From assembly GCF_027587195.1 (NCBI RefSeq), contig NZ_JAPDDP010000069.1:1-43527 (forward strand): a stretch of 43,527 nt of DNA, written 5' to 3'. The DNA is from Solirubrobacter phytolaccae (GTDB lineage Bacteria; Actinomycetota; Thermoleophilia; Solirubrobacterales; Solirubrobacteraceae). Shown here piece by piece: positions 1,453 through 6,026 of this stretch. The notes under the pieces were generated by a model. The model made no database searches, was not told where the DNA came from, and saw nothing but the letters and a program-made list of their open reading frames with translations. Numbering within the stretch: the stretch's first letter is position 1; each line of letters starts with the position of its first letter. The position numbers and the translations under genes are program-made.

Positions 1453-2829
1453 CTACCCGACCGGCACCTGAGAGCGGAACGCCCCGCGGTAGCGCGCCGC
1501 GGGATGGCGCTCGCTCAGCCGGTCGTTGCCGAACAGCTTGCGGCGCAGCGTGCCGGGCGTGTACTCGCGCTGGGCGAGGCCGCGCTCGCGCAGGACGGGG
1601 AGCACGTGGTCGATGAACTCCTGGTAGGAGCCGGGGATGGTGGCGTTGACCACGTTGATCCCGTCGACGCCCGCCTCGCTCCAGCGCGCGAGCTCGTCGG
1701 CGATCTGCTCCGGCGTGCCGGTGACGCGCGTGTTGCGCGTGCGCAGCCGCACGACGTCCTCGAGCGTCGGCGTGCGCCCGTTCGTCGCCTCACGCAGCCA
1801 CGCGAGCCCGCTCTGGCCGCCCTCGGTGTGGATGACGTCGATCGGCGTGTCCGGCTCGTAGGCGCCGAGGTCCACGCCCAGGCTGCCGCCGAAGTGGGCG
1901 ATCTGGCCGTCGATGTCGATCTTCTCCTCCAGCTCGGCCTCTTTGCGGAGCGCCTCCTCCTCGGTCGAGCCGACCACGAACGAGAGGCCCTGGAAGAACT
2001 TCAGGTCGTCGCGGTGGCGGCCGTGCGCCTCGACGAGCCGGCGCGTGTCGTCGATCAGCACGCGCGCCTGCTCGGCGCCGGGGCTGACGATGAACTGCGC
2101 CTCGGCGTGGCGGGCGGCGAAGTCGCGCCCGACCTTCGAGGAGCCCGCCTGGAAGAGCAGCGGCGTGCGCTGCGGAGAGGGCGCGGAGAGGAACGGGCCC
2201 TGGACCTTCCAGTGCTCGCTGACGTGGTTGATCGCGTGGATCTTCGACGGGTCGGCGTGACGGCCGCTGCCGCGGTCCTGCTCGAGCGCGTCCTCGTCCC
2301 ACGAGCCCTCCCAGAGCTTGTAGAGGACGTCGAGGTACTCGTCGGCGAACGCGTAGCGGTCGTCGTGGGAGAGCAGGTCGTCGTGGCCGAAGTTCTTCCA
2401 GCCGTTGGCGAGCGCGCTCGTGACGATGTTCCACGCGATCCGCCCGTTCGAGGCGTGATCGAGCGTGGCGACCTGGCGGGCGAAGTTGTACGGCGGCTGC
2501 TGGATCGGCCCGGCCGTGAACGCGAGCCCGAGGTGCTGGGTGTGCGACGCGAGCGCGGACAGGATCACCAGCGGGTCGTTGCTCGGGATCTGCAGGCCGA
2601 GCTCGGCGTGATGCGCCCAGCCGCCGCGGTAGTCGCCGTACACGCCGACGACGTCGGCGAAGAAGATCGCGTCGAACCCACCGGCCTCCAGGCGCTTCGC
2701 CAGATCGACCCACAGGTCGAGCTCGTTGAAGCGGAGCTGCTCGCCCTCCGGATCGCGCCACAAGCCGTGGACGATGTGCGACGCGGTGTTCATGACGAAC
2801 GCGGAGAAACGCAGCGGTGGTCTGGGCAT
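1453..2829 (-). CDS. FMNH2-dependent monooxygenase, NtaA/SnaA/DszA/SoxA family
   Basis: Two-component flavin monooxygenase (bacterial luciferase-like TIM barrel) of 458 residues, the normal family length. It needs reduced FMN supplied by a separate reductase and cleaves C-N or C-S bonds, or oxidises sulfone/aminopolycarboxylate substrates, depending on the member. Family landmarks are the start MPRPPLRFSAFVMNT, the segment GLWRDPEG, the segment AGPIQQPPYNFARQVATLD, GRIAWNIVTS near residue 130, and RTPLLFQAGSS near residue 220. The ATG at 2829 is 9 nt downstream of the stop of the upstream SfnB/DszC-like gene. A possible internal promoter (TAGTAT at 2841-2836 on the minus strand) would give a leaderless mRNA. 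Two flavin reductases are encoded divergently at 4969-6026, which fits. The substrate is unknown; an organosulfur compound is an inference. Confidence 0.9.
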   Translation of the reverse strand: MPRPPLRFSAFVMNTASHIVHGLWRDPEGEQLRFNELDLWVDLAKRLEAGGFDAIFFADVVGVYGDYRGGWAHHAELGLQIPSNDPLVILSALASHTQHLGLAFTAGPIQQPPYNFARQVATLDHASNGRIAWNIVTSALANGWKNFGHDDLLSHDDRYAFADEYLDVLYKLWEGSWDEDALEQDRGSGRHADPSKIHAINHVSEHWKVQGPFLSAPSPQRTPLLFQAGSSKVGRDFAARHAEAQFIVSPGAEQARVLIDDTRRLVEAHGRHRDDLKFFQGLSFVVGSTEEEALRKEAELEEKIDIDGQIAHFGGSLGVDLGAYEPDTPIDVIHTEGGQSGLAWLREATNGRTPTLEDVVRLRTRNTRVTGTPEQIADELARWSEAGVDGINVVNATIPGSYQEFIDHVLPVLRERGLAQREYTPGTLRRKLFGNDRLSERHPAARYRGAFRSQVPVG

Positions 2830-2838
2830 GACCGGATA

Positions 2839-4386
2839 CTACATAAACTTGATCGGATTACTTATATTTGCGATGGTGCGCCAGTGCTCGTCCAACCCGC
2901 GACCTCGCGTCAGCGCGCTGGCGCCCGCGATCTCGAGCGCGTCGCTGACGATCCGCAGCGCCACCTCGTCGGCGTAGCGGGCGCCCTCCCCGCGGGCGTC
3001 GAGCGCGTCGAGCGCGCGCAGCCGGACAGCGAGCTCGCCGAAGCGCAGGATCGCGTGCGGCTCGTCGACGGCCCGCGCGACGCCGGCCTCGGGCCAGGCG
3101 GAGCGCTGCGCGACGAACTGCGCAGCCTCGGCGAGAGCGGCGCGGGCGGCGTCGGCGACCACGTGGCCGGTGGGCACGAAGGACGGCAGCCGGGGCGGCG
3201 CGACCAGCTCGTCCGCGCGGTGCTTGAGCCCCGGCGAGCGCGGCGCGGGATACGCCCCGGTGAGCACGTGCCGCCCCACGTGGTGGAACGCCCAGCGCCC
3301 GGGATCGTGCACCGAGTGCGTCCGCGCGTTGCGCCAGTGGAGCTCGACCCGCGCCGCGAGCCGGGCGTCGCCGCCGACCCAGCGCGTGGCGGCGTCGGCG
3401 GTCCGCACGGACGTCCGGTACGAAAGCGCCCGCGCGGCGAACAGCGCGAGGCTCGCCTCGCCGAGCGCGAGCCGCGAGGGCGCGACGGTCAGGGCGGCCT
3501 CGCCGGACGCGTCGGCGTCGTTGCGCGGCGCGCCAAGCCCGTTGCGCGGCGCGGCCGTGCGCGGCGCGAGCGCGTCGATTTGCGCGGCGGCGTCGTCCAG
3601 CAGTGCGCGGGCCGCGGCCACGTGCGCCGTCACAGCCGCGAAGGCGTCGCTCTCGCGGACGTGCGCCGGCCACGACTCGGCCAGTACGGCTTCGGCGATG
3701 CCGACCTCGAGCGCCGGGTGCGGGATCTGCGCACGCAGCTCGCGGGCCTGTGCCGCGGGGGCGTCGCGCCACGCGTCGAGCACGTGGTCGCGCGGCACGG
3801 CCACGTCCGTCAACGTGACGCCGACGCTGCGGGTCGCGCGCTGGCCGAACGCCTCCCAGCGCGTCCCGACCTCGATCCCGTCGGCGCCGGCCGGCACCAG
3901 CGCGACGCGCAACTCGTCCCCCAGCAGGGCAGGGACCGCGAGCCACTGGGCGTCGACCGCGCCCGTGCAGTACGACTTCGCGCCGGTCAGCCGGAAGCCG
4001 TCACCGTCGGGCGTGAGCGTCGTCGGCCGGCGCGGGTCGGCGTCGCGGTTGAGGTTGCCGAAGCGCGCGCCGCGGTCGCGGATGTCGTCGCTGATCGCCT
4101 CCCGCACGGCGGGCGACGCCAGCGCCAGCAGCTCGACGTTGCCGACGTGGCCGTGCAGCTGCTGCGCGAGGCCGGGATCGCCCGTGGCGAGGATGCGCAC
4201 GAGGTCGGCGATCGCCGGGCCCGAAGCGCCCGCGCAGGCGCCGAGCAGCCCGCTTGCCGCCAGCGCCTCGAGCGCGCCGTCCTGCACCCACGGGTCGCGG
4301 TCACGGTCGAGCGCGCCGCGCCGCCAGTGGGCAGCCAGCCGCTCGGCGGCAGGAAGAACGGGCGACACCGAGAGCACGGATGGCAT
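2839..4386 (-). CDS. SfnB/DszC-like acyl-CoA-dehydrogenase-fold monooxygenase with an extra C-terminal lobe
   Basis: Flavin-dependent oxidoreductase with the acyl-CoA dehydrogenase fold, closest in style to SfnB/DszC 'sulfur acquisition' proteins that use FMNH2 and O2. 515 residues, against about 400 expected. Residues 1 to about 375 make a complete member, with the mid-domain segment around LTGAKSYCTGA and the usual ending HWRNARTHSVHDPGRW. It is followed by roughly 110 residues resembling a second C-terminal helical bundle ending in GRGLDEHWRTIANI. The start is ATG 4386; the frame stays open further upstream, but that stretch runs over the divergent gene and has no family similarity. First gene of a leftward operon with the DszA-like and FAD monooxygenase genes. 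A 13-bp direct repeat lies inside (3520-3553). Confidence 0.82.
   Translation of the reverse strand: MPSVLSVSPVLPAAERLAAHWRRGALDRDRDPWVQDGALEALAASGLLGACAGASGPAIADLVRILATGDPGLAQQLHGHVGNVELLALASPAVREAISDDIRDRGARFGNLNRDADPRRPTTLTPDGDGFRLTGAKSYCTGAVDAQWLAVPALLGDELRVALVPAGADGIEVGTRWEAFGQRATRSVGVTLTDVAVPRDHVLDAWRDAPAAQARELRAQIPHPALEVGIAEAVLAESWPAHVRESDAFAAVTAHVAAARALLDDAAAQIDALAPRTAAPRNGLGAPRNDADASGEAALTVAPSRLALGEASLALFAARALSYRTSVRTADAATRWVGGDARLAARVELHWRNARTHSVHDPGRWAFHHVGRHVLTGAYPAPRSPGLKHRADELVAPPRLPSFVPTGHVVADAARAALAEAAQFVAQRSAWPEAGVARAVDEPHAILRFGELAVRLRALDALDARGEGARYADEVALRIVSDALEIAGASALTRGRGLDEHWRTIANISNPIKFM
2844..2860. promoter_or_regulatory. Putative operator, copy B (TAAACTTGATCGGATTA)
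   Basis: Shares 12 of 17 positions with the copy at 4396-4412. Read on the minus strand it is CCGATC-N2-GTTTA followed by 14 nt and then the ATG of the FMNH2 monooxygenase at 2829. The same motif-to-ATG distance is found for the other copy. It sits in the last codons of the upstream gene, immediately before a -10-like TAGTAT. The binding protein is not known. Confidence 0.5.
3520..3553. repeat. 13-bp direct repeat, 21-bp period
   Basis: GTTGCGCGGCGCG occurs at 3520-3532 and 3541-3553. The 21-bp period keeps frame and encodes a repeated APRN-type segment in a loop of the SfnB/DszC-like protein. It looks like a small slippage expansion. Confidence 0.6.
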
Positions 4387-4387
4387 A

Positions 4388-4416
4388 TTGTCGACTTTAC
4401 CGATCGGGTTTAGGAT
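4388..4416 (+). promoter_or_regulatory. Candidate promoter for the DsbA-like/flavin reductase operon
   Basis: TTGTCG at 4388-4393, a 17-nt spacer and TAGGAT at 4411-4416. Transcription would begin about 4423-4427, at or just before the ATG at 4427, giving an essentially leaderless mRNA. An alternative -10 is TATTTA at 4416-4421. On the other strand TAAAGT (4399-4394) sits 7 nt before the ATG at 4386, so two divergent promoters probably overlap in this 40-bp gap. Confidence 0.45.
4396..4412. promoter_or_regulatory. Putative operator, copy A (TTTACCGATCGGGTTTA)
   Basis: Contains the perfect 8-bp palindrome CCGATCGG with AT-rich flanks, between the divergent starts at 4386 and 4427. On the plus strand it is CCGATC-N2-GTTTA and then 14 nt to the ATG at 4427, the same geometry as copy B at 2860-2844. 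It overlaps both candidate promoters, so a bound regulator could control both operons together. Functional assignment is inference. Confidence 0.5.
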
Positions 4417-4426
4417 ATTTAAGGCG

Positions 4427-4969
4427 ATGACCGAGTTCCAGGCGTACGAGCACACCGACATCAACAGCGCCACGGCGTTCAACGCCGAGCCCGTCCTGCG
4501 CCGCGTGCGCCACCGGTACGAGGGGCGCGCGTGGTGGCGACGGGTGTTCGGATCGTGTGAGCCTTCGCCCCTCGTGGCCCGGGCGGCGCGGGCCGCCGAG
4601 CACCAGGGCGCGGCCTGTGCCGAGGCCGTCCTGAAGCGGCTGCGCGAGGCGACGTTCGTCGATCGGACTCCGGTCGACGACGTGTCCGCGCTCGCCGCGG
4701 CGCTCGCCGACGTGCCCGGCCTGGACGTGTCGCGGCTCATCCGCGACCTCGAGTCGCCCGACGTCGTGTGGTCGGTCGACGCCGACCGCTCGCTCACCCG
4801 CCGCCGCGGTGGCGGCGAGGCGCCGTGCCCGTACCCGACCGTGCTGTTCCGTGGACCCGGAGGTGATCGTGTGGTGACCGGCCCGCAGCCGTTCGAGGCC
4901 TACGTTGAAGCGATCGAGGCGGTGGCGCCGGCACTGCGCGGCGTGCGCCCGCTCGCGGAGGCCGCCTGA
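4427..4969 (+). CDS. DsbA/FrnE-like thioredoxin-fold protein without the CxxC motif
   Basis: 180-residue protein resembling cytoplasmic DsbA-family dithiol isomerases (FrnE type). The N-terminus reads HTDINSATAFNAEPVLRRVR, where active members have a D-x-x-CPWC-W-A-x-EP arrangement; here S14 and A17 stand at the two cysteine positions. The C-terminal cis-proline region is kept (PYPTVLFRGPGG, then the TGPQPFEAYVEAI helix). It should therefore be unable to do thiol-disulfide exchange and may act as a binding or assembly partner. Its stop shares one base with the start of the flavin reductase (TGATG at 4967-4971), so the two are translationally coupled. The ATG at 4427 is chosen because family similarity begins there. 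Confidence 0.7.
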   Translation: MTEFQAYEHTDINSATAFNAEPVLRRVRHRYEGRAWWRRVFGSCEPSPLVARAARAAEHQGAACAEAVLKRLREATFVDRTPVDDVSALAAALADVPGLDVSRLIRDLESPDVVWSVDADRSLTRRRGGGEAPCPYPTVLFRGPGGDRVVTGPQPFEAYVEAIEAVAPALRGVRPLAEAA

Positions 4970-5463
4970 TGGGCGCCGCCGTGCAGCCGCTCCCCGCGGA
5001 CGCGCTGCGGGCCGCGATGGGCCACTTCGCCACCGGCGTCACCGTCGTCACGGCCGGACCGGGCCGCGACCCGCACGGGAGCACCGTCAACGCGATCACG
5101 TCCGTGTCGCTCGCCCCGCCGCTGCTGCTGATCTGCCTGCGCGAGGACTCGCTGACGCTCGGCGCCCTCCTCACCGCCGGGCACTTCGGCGTCAACGTCC
5201 TGCGCGAGCACCAGACGTCGATCGCGAAGCGCTTCGCCCGTCGGGGCGCGTCGTGGGACGGCGTCACCTACTCGCAGGGCATCGTCGGCGGTGTCCCCGT
5301 GATCGACGGCGCGCTCGCGACGCTCGAATGCGCCGTCCACGACGTCGCCGACGGCGGCGACCACCGGATCATCGTCGGCCAGGTGCTTGCGGTCGAGCAC
5401 CCCGAGGAGCACGTCTCGCCGCTGCTGTTCTACCGCGGCACGTTCACGAAGCTGGGAGCCTGA
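4969..5463 (+). CDS. Flavin reductase (HpaC/flavin_Reduct domain)
   Basis: 164-residue FMN/FAD reductase of the HpaC class, which uses NAD(P)H to make free reduced flavin for two-component monooxygenases. Typical features are the opening LRAAMGHFATGVTVVTA (about residues 12-28), NAITSVSLAPPLLLICL (about 42-58), the GHFGVNVL strand, and the closing LLFYRGTFTKL. Full length. It overlaps the previous stop by one base, and the next gene begins 3 nt after its stop. Its likely clients are the divergently encoded NtaA/DszA-like and SfnB/DszC-like enzymes. Confidence 0.93.
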   Translation: MGAAVQPLPADALRAAMGHFATGVTVVTAGPGRDPHGSTVNAITSVSLAPPLLLICLREDSLTLGALLTAGHFGVNVLREHQTSIAKRFARRGASWDGVTYSQGIVGGVPVIDGALATLECAVHDVADGGDHRIIVGQVLAVEHPEEHVSPLLFYRGTFTKLGA

Positions 5464-5465
5464 GA

Positions 5466-6026
5466 GTGTCGATCGTCGCCATCATCGGATCCGCCACGCC
5501 GCCCGGCCGCCTGCGCCGCGCCGTCGCGGAAGCGCTCGACCGGTCCCCCGCCGAGACGCAGCTGTTCGACCTGGCCGAGCATCCGCTGCCGTTCGCGGGC
5601 TCGGCGCACTTCGAGGCCCCGATCCTCGACGCCGTCGCCACCGCCGACGCTGTGCTCCTCGCCACGCCCGTGTACCGCGGCACGTACACGGGCGTGCTCA
5701 AGAACCTGCTCGACCTGCTGCCCGTCGAGGCGCTCCAGGGCAAGCCGGCGGCGATCGCCGCGATGGGCGCCACCGACCACCACTCGCTCGGGCCCGACTG
5801 GCACCTGCGGGACACGCTCGCGTGGTTCGGGGCGCTGACCCTGCCGACGAGCGCGTACCTGAGCTCGCGCGACTTCACCGACGGCGTCCCCGGCGACCGG
5901 GGCGTGGCGGAGCTCGACGAGCTGCTCGCGGGGCTGGCCGCGCTCGCGGACGCGCTGCCCGAGGGCGTCACGCTCGGGCCGGCGCCGCTGGCCGCGCGGG
6001 CGCGCGCTACGCCGCGAGGCGGGTGA
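5466..6026 (+). CDS. NAD(P)H-dependent FMN reductase (SsuE/MsuE-like)
   Basis: 186-residue flavodoxin-fold reductase. The phosphate-binding loop is near the start (IIGSATPPGRLRRAV, about residues 6-20) and the second family motif is ATPVYRGTYTGVLKNLLD near residue 70. It would generate FMNH2 for sulfonate- or sulfone-type monooxygenases. The GTG start at 5466 is 3 nt after the flavin reductase stop; no better start exists. A second, unrelated flavin reductase in one operon is unusual and implies either two clients or two flavins. Its 3' end overlaps the convergent YbaK gene by 20 bp. Confidence 0.88.
   Translation: MSIVAIIGSATPPGRLRRAVAEALDRSPAETQLFDLAEHPLPFAGSAHFEAPILDAVATADAVLLATPVYRGTYTGVLKNLLDLLPVEALQGKPAAIAAMGATDHHSLGPDWHLRDTLAWFGALTLPTSAYLSSRDFTDGVPGDRGVAELDELLAGLAALADALPEGVTLGPAPLAARARATPRGG

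What the first reader, a model, noticed from the sequence alone, without database searches (positions are those of the whole stretch)
2827..4429. A shared motif stands at exactly the same distance from two start codons in the flavin cassette
CCGATC-N2-GTTTA followed by 14 nt and ATG occurs before the DsbA-like gene (plus strand, 4400-4429) and again before the NtaA/DszA-like gene (minus strand, 2856-2827). Over the 17-bp core the two copies match at 12 positions, and I saw no other copy in the window. Copy A also sits between the divergent starts at 4386 and 4427. Identical spacing to ATG in a leaderless-looking context suggests one regulator, or one promoter class, controlling both arms.
Basis: partly seen in the sequence, partly recalled or inferred. 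Interest (0 to 1): 0.6.

Follow-up and report, generated by a model that had tools for sequence, protein, structure and literature searches.

The report
Sulfur-regulon operator, shared across a bacterial order
The two matching DNA stretches are copies of a short mirror-image control site that also stands before sulfur-uptake and cysteine-making genes in related soil bacteria, so they are very probably switches that turn on organic-sulfur scavenging when sulfur runs short.

Summary
In detail: CCGATC-N2-GTTTA-N14-ATG occurs twice in the window, where about 0.002 exact cores are expected. Both copies are parts of a 16-bp palindrome, consensus AAACCCGATCGGGTTT. It is not peculiar to the flavin cassette. 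EM with no preset motif finds it upstream of sulfite reductase genes (log-likelihood 211.5; best of 20 shuffles 76.9). It also precedes sulfate ABC, MetN, cystine-type symporter, cysK, cysH-sat, metH, moeZ, sulfurtransferase and organosulfur genes across the order. A TANNNT -10 box stands at a preferred +13. Both window ATGs fall at +25, the expected start of a leaderless mRNA; this explains the equal spacing. Copy B overlaps the last codons of the SfnB/DszC-like gene.

Best explanation: operator of a sulfur-limitation regulon. The leading regulator candidate is a cysteine-poor, CymR-like Rrf2 protein ending MY[YHQWF]I in 33 of 33 sequences read, like CysK-docking tails, and in 3 of 9 neighbourhoods directly followed by cysK. 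A paralogue beside sulfur transport genes is second. Operator identity is strong; regulator identity and repression are inferred. No paper describing this operator turned up in the searches made.

The parts
4396..4411 (+). Palindromic operator A, TTTACCGATCGGGTTT, between the divergent SfnB/DszC-like and DsbA-like starts
   Evidence: 18.3 bits with the symmetrised 16-bp matrix; third-best place in the window scores 12.2; R2 model E=0.00032 (A and B are among its 19 seeds)
4416..4421 (+). AT-rich -10-like hexamer TATTTA (imperfect TANNNT, at +14), 5 nt before ATG
   Evidence: sequence; position compared with other sites
2845..2860 (-). Palindromic operator B, TAATCCGATCAAGTTT, inside the 3' end of the SfnB/DszC-like ORF, before NtaA/DmoA-like
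   Evidence: 21.5 bits; R2 E=0.0014
2836..2841 (-). -10 box TAGTAT at +13 from GATC; its TAG is also the stop codon of the upstream ORF; 6 nt before ATG (leaderless geometry)
   Evidence: sequence; +13 offset
1453..2829 (-). NtaA/DmoA-family FMN-dependent monooxygenase
   Evidence: TIGR03860 486 bits, cut-off 280
2839..4386 (-). SfnB/DszC-like acyl-CoA-dehydrogenase-fold flavoprotein
   Evidence: TIGR04022 SfnB 210 bits, below its cut-off 431; Acyl-CoA_dh_M 31 bits, just below cut-off 33.3
4427..4969 (+). DsbA/FrnE-like thioredoxin-fold protein
   Evidence: Pfam Thioredoxin_5, 29.3 bits, cut-off 27
4969..5463 (+). Flavin reductase
   Evidence: Pfam Flavin_Reduct E 1.4e-42
5460..6026 (+). MsuE/SsuE-like FMN reductase
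   Evidence: TIGR03566 95.8 bits, below cut-off 212.5

Best explanation
Copies A and B are operators of a global sulfur-limitation regulon conserved in the Solirubrobacteraceae-like family and its order. A dimeric transcription factor binds the palindrome AAACCCGATCGGGTTT, which covers the spacer just upstream of the -10 box (shown by sequence: conservation, palindrome, preferred +13 spacing, sulfur targets). The factor is most likely a CymR-like Rrf2 protein of about 130 aa whose C-terminal MY-x-I tail could dock into cysteine synthase CysK (inferred from family, conserved tail and cysK linkage). When sulfur is ample, the regulator, probably with CysK, would sit on the promoter and block it. 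When cysteine is short and O-acetylserine rises, it would let go, and the sulfate, cystine, methionine and organosulfur genes, including the NtaA-like and SfnB/DszC-like flavoenzymes and their flavin reductases, are transcribed. At A and B the mRNA is predicted to start at the A of ATG. My rough parts: operator of a dedicated sulfur regulon 0.95; Rrf2 regulator 0.75; the CysK-tail protein rather than its paralogue 0.6; repression rather than activation 0.65.
For: EM with no preset motif on 16 sulfite reductase upstream regions gives this motif with log-likelihood 211.5 (20 shuffles: best 76.9), and 145.4 with one member of the window's genus only (best shuffle 69.7). A CysH-like gene follows the reductase in G000 and G005 (by eye). 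In the own genome 10 of 14 distinct R2 places are upstream of genes, among them SiR-cysH, a sulfate binding protein, MoeZ/rhodanese-CysO, an SDF symporter, OsmC and a nucleoside hydrolase plus sugar-type ABC pair. In the order but outside the family, 11 of 17 hits precede core sulfur genes (NIR/SIR 6, metH 2, cysK, cysH-sat, rhodanese), 2 precede a peroxiredoxin, 4 are coding or unclear; 0 of 5 hits outside the order are at sulfur genes. TANNNT at +13 in 22 of 51 listed sites (2000 composition-keeping shuffles: at most 7 at any offset) and in 30 of 181 core-only contexts, next-highest offset 6. The CysK-tail protein matches in 108 of 121 family genomes, 3 of them over the first 90 or so residues only; 33 of 33 sequences obtained end MY[YHQWF]I; cysK is directly downstream in 3 of 9 neighbourhoods. 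Its paralogue, in 7 of 7 genus genomes, has an operator 8-12 nt downstream in G000, G001 and G006. Literature passages: CymR with CysK represses cysteine genes (PMC2869319; PMC2940859); C-terminal Ile motifs occur in CysK partners including CymR (PMC12895370).
Against: No binding or expression data. All three Rrf2 groups score far below the curated NCBIfam CymR cut-off (80.2, 86.3, and 97.0 for the SUF-linked one, against 195). The CysK-tail protein was not found in G066, G104 and G112, whose sites were read, nor in G113 (SiR site), G123 and G140 (sites not read); these six assemblies have 290 to 1060 contigs. The paralogue is absent from G011, G015, G021, G033, G062, G094 and G113, which have SiR sites. 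A 16-bp palindrome is shorter than the 23-39-bp Rrf2 operator fragments in the structures cited in PMC9338935. Some targets (carbonic anhydrase, M14 peptidase, peroxiredoxin) are not obviously sulfur genes. Some model hits are plainly coding, for example inside the first codons of cysK in G129. The phase to the -10 is unusual for a plain repressor site. R2 models columns near the -10, so R2-found sites are biased towards +13; the ATG excess at +25/+26 (6 and 8 of 181) is weak, since +17 has 7.
Confidence: 0.68

Rival explanations
1. The operator is read mainly by the second Rrf2 paralogue (about 153 aa, no CysK-type tail) encoded beside sulfur transport genes; the CysK-tail protein serves other genes or shares the sites.
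For: Gene beside the sugar-type ABC gene in G000, G001 and G002, between MetQ and CysP in G005, and about 5 kb from MetN/CysP in G004; operator 8-12 nt downstream in G000, G001 and G006; convergent with cysPTWA in G035 and G086.
Against: Seven genomes with SiR sites lack it (G011, G015, G021, G033, G062, G094, G113), though G113 and G094 are incomplete and their sites are among the weaker ones.
Confidence: 0.22
2. Activation, not repression: the dimer binds in the promoter spacer at a fixed phase and replaces a poor -35 box, turning genes on during sulfur limitation.
For: Phasing to the -10 at +13; no obvious -35 consensus seen by eye upstream of the sites listed.
Against: Described CymR proteins repress (PMC2869319, PMC2940859 passages); the site lies where polymerase must sit; the left arm AAA could form part of a -35 box.
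Confidence: 0.22
3. A regulator from another family (TetR McbR-like, LysR, ROK or MarR) reads the palindrome.
For: Perfect short palindrome without spacer; a LysR gene is divergent from one site in G065 (L162); C. glutamicum uses McbR and CysR for sulfur (PMC2580772, title and abstract start in the listing).
Against: I noticed no other regulator family recurring beside sites in the loci read (not a systematic search); two cysteine-poor Rrf2 proteins with sulfur linkage were found.
Confidence: 0.2
4. Chance resemblance, or codon constraint for copy B (conserved NP-I-K-F protein motif).
For: Copy B is coding; SNPIKF resembles an end motif of DszC-like proteins (recalled).
Against: 0.002 copies expected in the window; the L028 orthologue does not keep the peptide end; AT-rich codons in a GC-rich gene; conservation at sulfur genes in the family and order.
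Confidence: 0.02

Closest known systems
CymR-CysK cysteine regulon of Bacillus subtilis and Staphylococcus aureus
   Same: Rrf2 fold; cystine uptake and cysteine synthesis targets; a C-terminal Ile motif is reported for B. subtilis CymR as for other CysK partners (passages of PMC2869319, PMC2940859, PMC12895370)
   Different: Different phylum; GC-rich 16-bp palindrome (the Firmicute CymR box is AT-rich: recalled); below the curated CymR cut-off; targets include sulfate ABC transport, sulfite reductase, metH and NtaA/SfnB-like flavoenzymes
Proposed CymR/Rrf2 regulator of Rhodococcus qingshengii IGTS8 (peg394)
   Same: Actinobacterial Rrf2 protein proposed as global sulfur regulator; dsz, an NtaA-like protein, MetQ and tau proteins are listed as up in the dibenzothiophene culture (PMC8557817 passages)
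   Different: The passages read describe no operator, and state that its immediate neighbourhood has no sulfur genes; orthology to the proteins here not tested
McbR/CysR sulfur regulation in Corynebacterium glutamicum
   Same: Actinobacterial control of sulfur metabolism (PMC2580772, listing and abstract start only)
   Different: ROK-type CysR under McbR (listing); that McbR is TetR-type is stated in PMC8557817; operators differ (recalled)

Membership tests
CymR (NCBIfam NF047409 equivalog) | Curated score cut-off 195 bits | tested here: not met
   80.2 (CysK-tail protein), 86.3 (paralogue), 97.0 (SUF-linked) bits
Rrf2 superfamily (TIGR00738 / PF02082) | Score above curated cut-off | tested here: met
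   91.3 and 114.6 bits against 73.3; PF02082 88.6 and 122.1 bits against 30
CymR-type (as against Fe-S Rrf2 proteins) | No three-cysteine Fe-S ligand set | tested here: met
   The 33 printed CysK-tail sequences have 0 or 1 cysteine by eye; the paralogue 0 or 1 in the 27 of 30 read
CymR-type | C-terminal Ile tail able to dock into CysK | tested here: met
   33 of 33 sequences obtained from 36 loci end MY[YHQWF]I; actual docking not tested
CymR-type | Direct binding to operators of cysteine genes, relieved by O-acetylserine through CysK | not testable with these tools
   needs EMSA or footprinting
Sulfur-limitation regulon | Same operator upstream of several sulfur assimilation genes in several genera | tested here: met
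Leaderless promoter class | -10 box 6-7 nt before ATG | tested here: inconclusive
   B: TAGTAT-N6-ATG fits; A: TATTTA-N5-ATG has an imperfect box one base off; 5' ends not mapped

The most novel reading that the evidence does not exclude
A whole actinobacterial order senses sulfur through a biosynthetic enzyme: CysK docks onto the MY-x-I tail of a cysteine-poor Rrf2 protein, and the pair controls sulfate, cystine, methionine and organosulfur use through a GC-rich palindrome locked at a fixed phase to the -10 box, with a tail-less paralogue competing for the same sites.
Probability: 0.4. Interest if true: 0.7.

Novelty: new member of a known kind. Interest (0 to 1): 0.6.

Why it matters
PMC8557817 (passages) reports that a Rhodococcus desulfurizer lacks homologues of the known global sulfur regulators CysB, Cbl, CmbR and McbR, and proposes an Rrf2 protein as candidate; the passages read give no operator. 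Here an operator, a target list and two candidate regulators are given for an order of Actinobacteria. That makes the question of who controls organosulfur monooxygenases directly testable, and predicts that NtaA/SfnB/DszC-like cassettes under this site are sulfur-scavenging genes. It would also extend CysK moonlighting as a sulfur sensor beyond Firmicutes.

Tried and rejected
Coding constraint as the sole origin of copy B: rejected (and L028 lacks the peptide end). The genome copy at C88:9550 is beside or in a trp gene and taken as chance. Of the 22 exact-core places outside the own genome, I regard six as real (L010, L013, L014, L026, L017, L018, the last two beside the Rrf2 paralogue); the rest look coding or were not followed up. 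The tail-less paralogue as sole regulator: weakened by genomes with sites but without it. Class-level co-occurrence: 35 of 163 genomes with a CysK-tail match have sites and 4 of 87 without (Fisher p 0.0004), but it is confounded by relatedness, by a model trained on the family, and because several of the 163 matches cover only about 90 residues and may not be the tail protein. NtaA regions, 11 examined: a site of 14.7-25.3 bits upstream of the promoter-proximal transporter gene in G000:C109, G065, G072 and G314:C197; no place of 12.5 bits or more before the operon in G016, G023, G067, G093 and G324; the promoter is not visible in G105 and G314:C100. C44:92132 lies at the start of a PucR-type gene and was left unassigned. 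The cysK place in G129 (L169/L257) first looked like a promoter hit but lies in the gene's first codons and is not counted. The SfnB-like search of genome contigs gave only 1 relative.

Rows dropped: G006 from the EM run (duplicate of G001); G002, G004 and G094 SiR sites were not put in the R2 alignment; G039 was not counted in the out-of-family test because it is a seed; three of the 12 neighbourhoods fetched for the tail protein (L188, L192, L195) proved to hold another Rrf2 group. The 51 sites and the 34 are hand-picked lists; orientation follows the downstream gene except G031 and G265, which follow R2.
Full report
OBSERVATION. The two copies are real and at the stated places: CCGATCGGGTTTA at 4400-4412 (+), 14 nt before the ATG at 4427, and CCGATCAAGTTTA at 2856-2844 (-), 14 nt before the ATG at 2829. 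They agree at 12 of 17 positions. No other exact copy is in the window. A first-order model of the window expects 0.002 exact cores in the window and 0.38 in a genome of 7.74 Mb; the genome has 4 and the reversed control pattern has 0. Copy B is inside the 3' end of the SfnB/DszC-like ORF (4386 to 2839, -): the codons are AAT CCG ATC AAG TTT ATG TAG. GC3 falls from 0.946 to 0.50 over the last 12 sense codons, and the ORF's TAG is also the first half of a TAGTAT -10 box. The orthologue in L028 (58% identity, Solirubrobacteraceae MAG) does not keep this peptide end, so protein constraint does not explain the site.

FROM TWO COPIES TO A MOTIF. Of the other two exact copies in the genome, C96:642 stands before a secreted M14 carboxypeptidase and is conserved in G002; C88:9550 looks like chance. 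In 61 genomes (G000 and 60 relatives), 19 have an exact core. I take six of the 22 places outside the own genome as real: the M14 orthologue in G002; a SsuD-like N-terminus in G023, where 23 of 25 bases equal copy B and its flank (by eye; the gene looks frameshifted); a NIR/SIR-family reductase in G021; a peroxiredoxin in G039; and two beside an Rrf2 gene in G001 and G006. I then took the reductase as bait: 17 of 121 family genomes have it at E <= 1e-80. EM on 16 of these upstream regions (G006 dropped as a duplicate of G001), with no motif given, returned AATCCcGATCcGGTTT, beginning 34-91 nt before the start. The method assigns one place to each sequence by construction (scores 19.4-33.4 bits, G113 weakest), so I added a control: log-likelihood 211.5 against at most 76.9 in 20 shuffles; with one member of the window's genus only, 145.4 against at most 69.7. 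In the two genus loci read, G000 and G005, the reductase is followed by a CysH-like PAPS reductase gene (by eye), so I read it as an assimilatory sulfite reductase, although its best NCBIfam model is ferredoxin-nitrite reductase below cut-off. From 34 hand-picked sites the matrix is AAACCCGATCGGGTTT, a perfect 16-bp palindrome. With the symmetrised matrix, the window's best places are B (21.5 bits) and A (18.3); the next is 12.2. In 214,659 bases of regulator neighbourhoods only 1 place reached 14 bits.

THE REGULON. In the own genome, model R2 gives 16 matches at E <= 10, that is 14 distinct places. Ten are upstream of genes: A, B, the M14 peptidase, a nucleoside hydrolase, a sugar-type ABC binding protein, an SDF-family symporter (TcyP-like by recall; Pfam shows SDF only), sulfite reductase-cysH, ThiF/rhodanese MoeZ followed by a CysO-like gene, OsmC, and a sulfate ABC binding protein over the curated cut-off, whose site overlaps the called 3' end of the preceding ORF. 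Four are inside genes or at a PucR-type gene start. In G004 a site separates MetN from the sulfate transporter. At family level 61 of 121 genomes have a site at E <= 0.5. Of 21 places read, 12 precede core sulfur genes (NIR/SIR 6, sulfate binding protein 4, sulfurtransferase 2). One precedes a flavin reductase and one the transporter that leads an NtaA operon (G065). Three precede carbonic anhydrase, two precede other genes (DUF4395-type and amidohydrolase, by eye), one is inside the first codons of cysK, and one is unclear. Away from the training set, the class was searched (250 genomes at least 85% complete): 39 genomes have a site at E <= 0.1, 34 of them in the order. Seventeen hits lie in the order but outside the family (seed genome G039 not counted). 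Eleven precede core sulfur genes (NIR/SIR 6, metH 2, cysK, cysH-sat, rhodanese), 2 a peroxiredoxin, and 4 are coding or unclear; of 5 hits outside the order, 4 are inside genes, 1 precedes an SDR gene, and 0 are at sulfur genes. Gene names in these lists are by eye except those confirmed by HMM.

PROMOTER GEOMETRY. Counting from the G of GATC, a TANNNT box begins at +13 in 22 of 51 listed sites; in 2000 composition-keeping shuffles no offset exceeded 7. Using only the 16-bp core (17 bits or more, all held loci, both orientations of each palindrome), 30 of 181 contexts have it at +13; the next-highest offset has 6. R2 itself models these columns, so part of the enrichment in R2-found sites is built in. 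With a -10 at +13 the transcript should start near +25. ATG is at +25 exactly for both window genes, and at +25 or +26 with a +13 box in 8 contexts; over all 181 contexts the ATG excess is weak (+25: 6, +26: 8, but +17: 7). Copy A has an imperfect box (TATTTA at +14).

THE REGULATOR. The genus has three Rrf2 groups over the Pfam cut-off, each in 7 of 7 genomes. One is SUF-linked. One (about 153 aa, 0 or 1 cysteine) lies beside the sugar-type ABC gene (G000, G001, G002), between MetQ and CysP (G005) or about 5 kb from MetN/CysP (G004), with an operator 8-12 nt downstream in G000, G001 and G006. The third (about 130 aa) matches in 108 of 121 family genomes at E <= 1e-20, three of these (G084, G099, G138) only over the first 90 or so residues and so probably another group. 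The second is missing from seven genomes that have sulfite reductase sites, so the third is the better candidate. Of 12 neighbourhoods fetched for it, 9 are truly its own (L188, L192 and L195 hold another group): gltX is called nearby in 7 of 9, and cysK follows directly in 3 of 9 (G069, G029, G024). Of 36 loci, 33 yielded its sequence by my search, and all 33 end MY[YHQWF]I. C-terminal Ile motifs are how several proteins engage CysK, and CymR is listed among them (PMC12895370, passages). CymR and CysK form a complex that represses cysteine genes (PMC2869319 and PMC2940859, passages). By sequence the closest solved structures are Rrf2 proteins including B. subtilis and S. aureus CymR. Against this, none of the three groups reaches the curated CymR cut-off, so I do not file it as CymR: it probably works like CymR. 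G066, G104 and G112 (sites read), G113, G123 and G140 lack a detected third-group gene; their assemblies are fragmented.

MECHANISM. Most likely the regulator occupies the promoter spacer when sulfur is ample and leaves when cysteine is low and O-acetylserine accumulates. Shown by sequence: operator, palindrome, phase, targets, tail. Inferred: which protein binds, the CysK link, the signal, and repression. The phase and the lack of a visible -35 keep activation from the spacer open.

THE CASSETTE. The window genes are an NtaA/DmoA-family FMN monooxygenase, an SfnB/DszC-like protein, a thioredoxin-fold protein, a flavin reductase and an MsuE-like FMN reductase, a set that fits organosulfur scavenging. 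Site A, being palindromic and between divergent starts, may serve both arms. The paralogous NtaA operon of the same genome (C109) also begins with a site of 21.8 bits. NtaA relatives at E <= 1e-130 are in 10 of 146 family genomes; across 11 regions, four have a site before the first transporter gene, five do not, and two do not show the promoter.

LITERATURE. PMC8557817 (passages) proposes an Rrf2/CymR-type global sulfur regulator in Rhodococcus; the passages read give no operator. No paper in the searched library holds the 16-base consensus, and none holds both Solirubrobacter and Rrf2. Other searches, seen as listings, are. Subscription journals and regulon databases were not searched, so novelty is claimed only within this library.

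VERDICT. A real operator of a sulfur regulon spanning an order; new member of a known kind of regulation; interest 0.6.

Noticed in passing
G000:C44 79545-82144 (L078 7546-10145): Strong operators precede a nucleoside-hydrolase-like gene and a sugar-type ABC binding protein next to the Rrf2 paralogue; this could be a scavenging route for methylthioadenosine or methylthioribose sulfur.
   Followed up: partly
L013 1501-1650 (G023): Operator almost identical to copy B precedes what looks like the first 25-30 residues of an SsuD-like alkanesulfonate monooxygenase that then goes out of frame (pseudogene or assembly error); 33 aa gave no family hit.
   Followed up: partly
L159, L161, L170: Beta-type carbonic anhydrase genes carry the operator in three genomes of two genera; no obvious sulfur role.
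   Followed up: no
L010, L042, L244, L246: A peroxiredoxin gene follows the operator or is divergent from sulfite reductase across it in four genomes (1-Cys type by Pfam in L244 only).
   Followed up: partly
window 2839-4386 (-): The SfnB/DszC-like protein seems to carry two HWR-type C-terminal motifs (HWRNARTHSVHDP and, at its very end, HWRTIANISNP), as if the end of the domain were repeated.
   Followed up: no
L002/L026: Operator conserved before a secreted M14 zinc carboxypeptidase in G000 and G002, not an evident sulfur gene; perhaps peptide scavenging.
   Followed up: partly
L032, L034, L037 (genus sulfite reductase promoters): Some genus members have, by eye, two operator-like sites about 31 bp apart (about three helical turns) before sulfite reductase.
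   Followed up: no
G001:C22:93176 (L091) and G093:C231:6784 (L172): The operator precedes an amidohydrolase-like gene (MRLDVHQHL / IDIHQHLWP type) in two genera; a possible further regulon member of unknown role.
   Followed up: no
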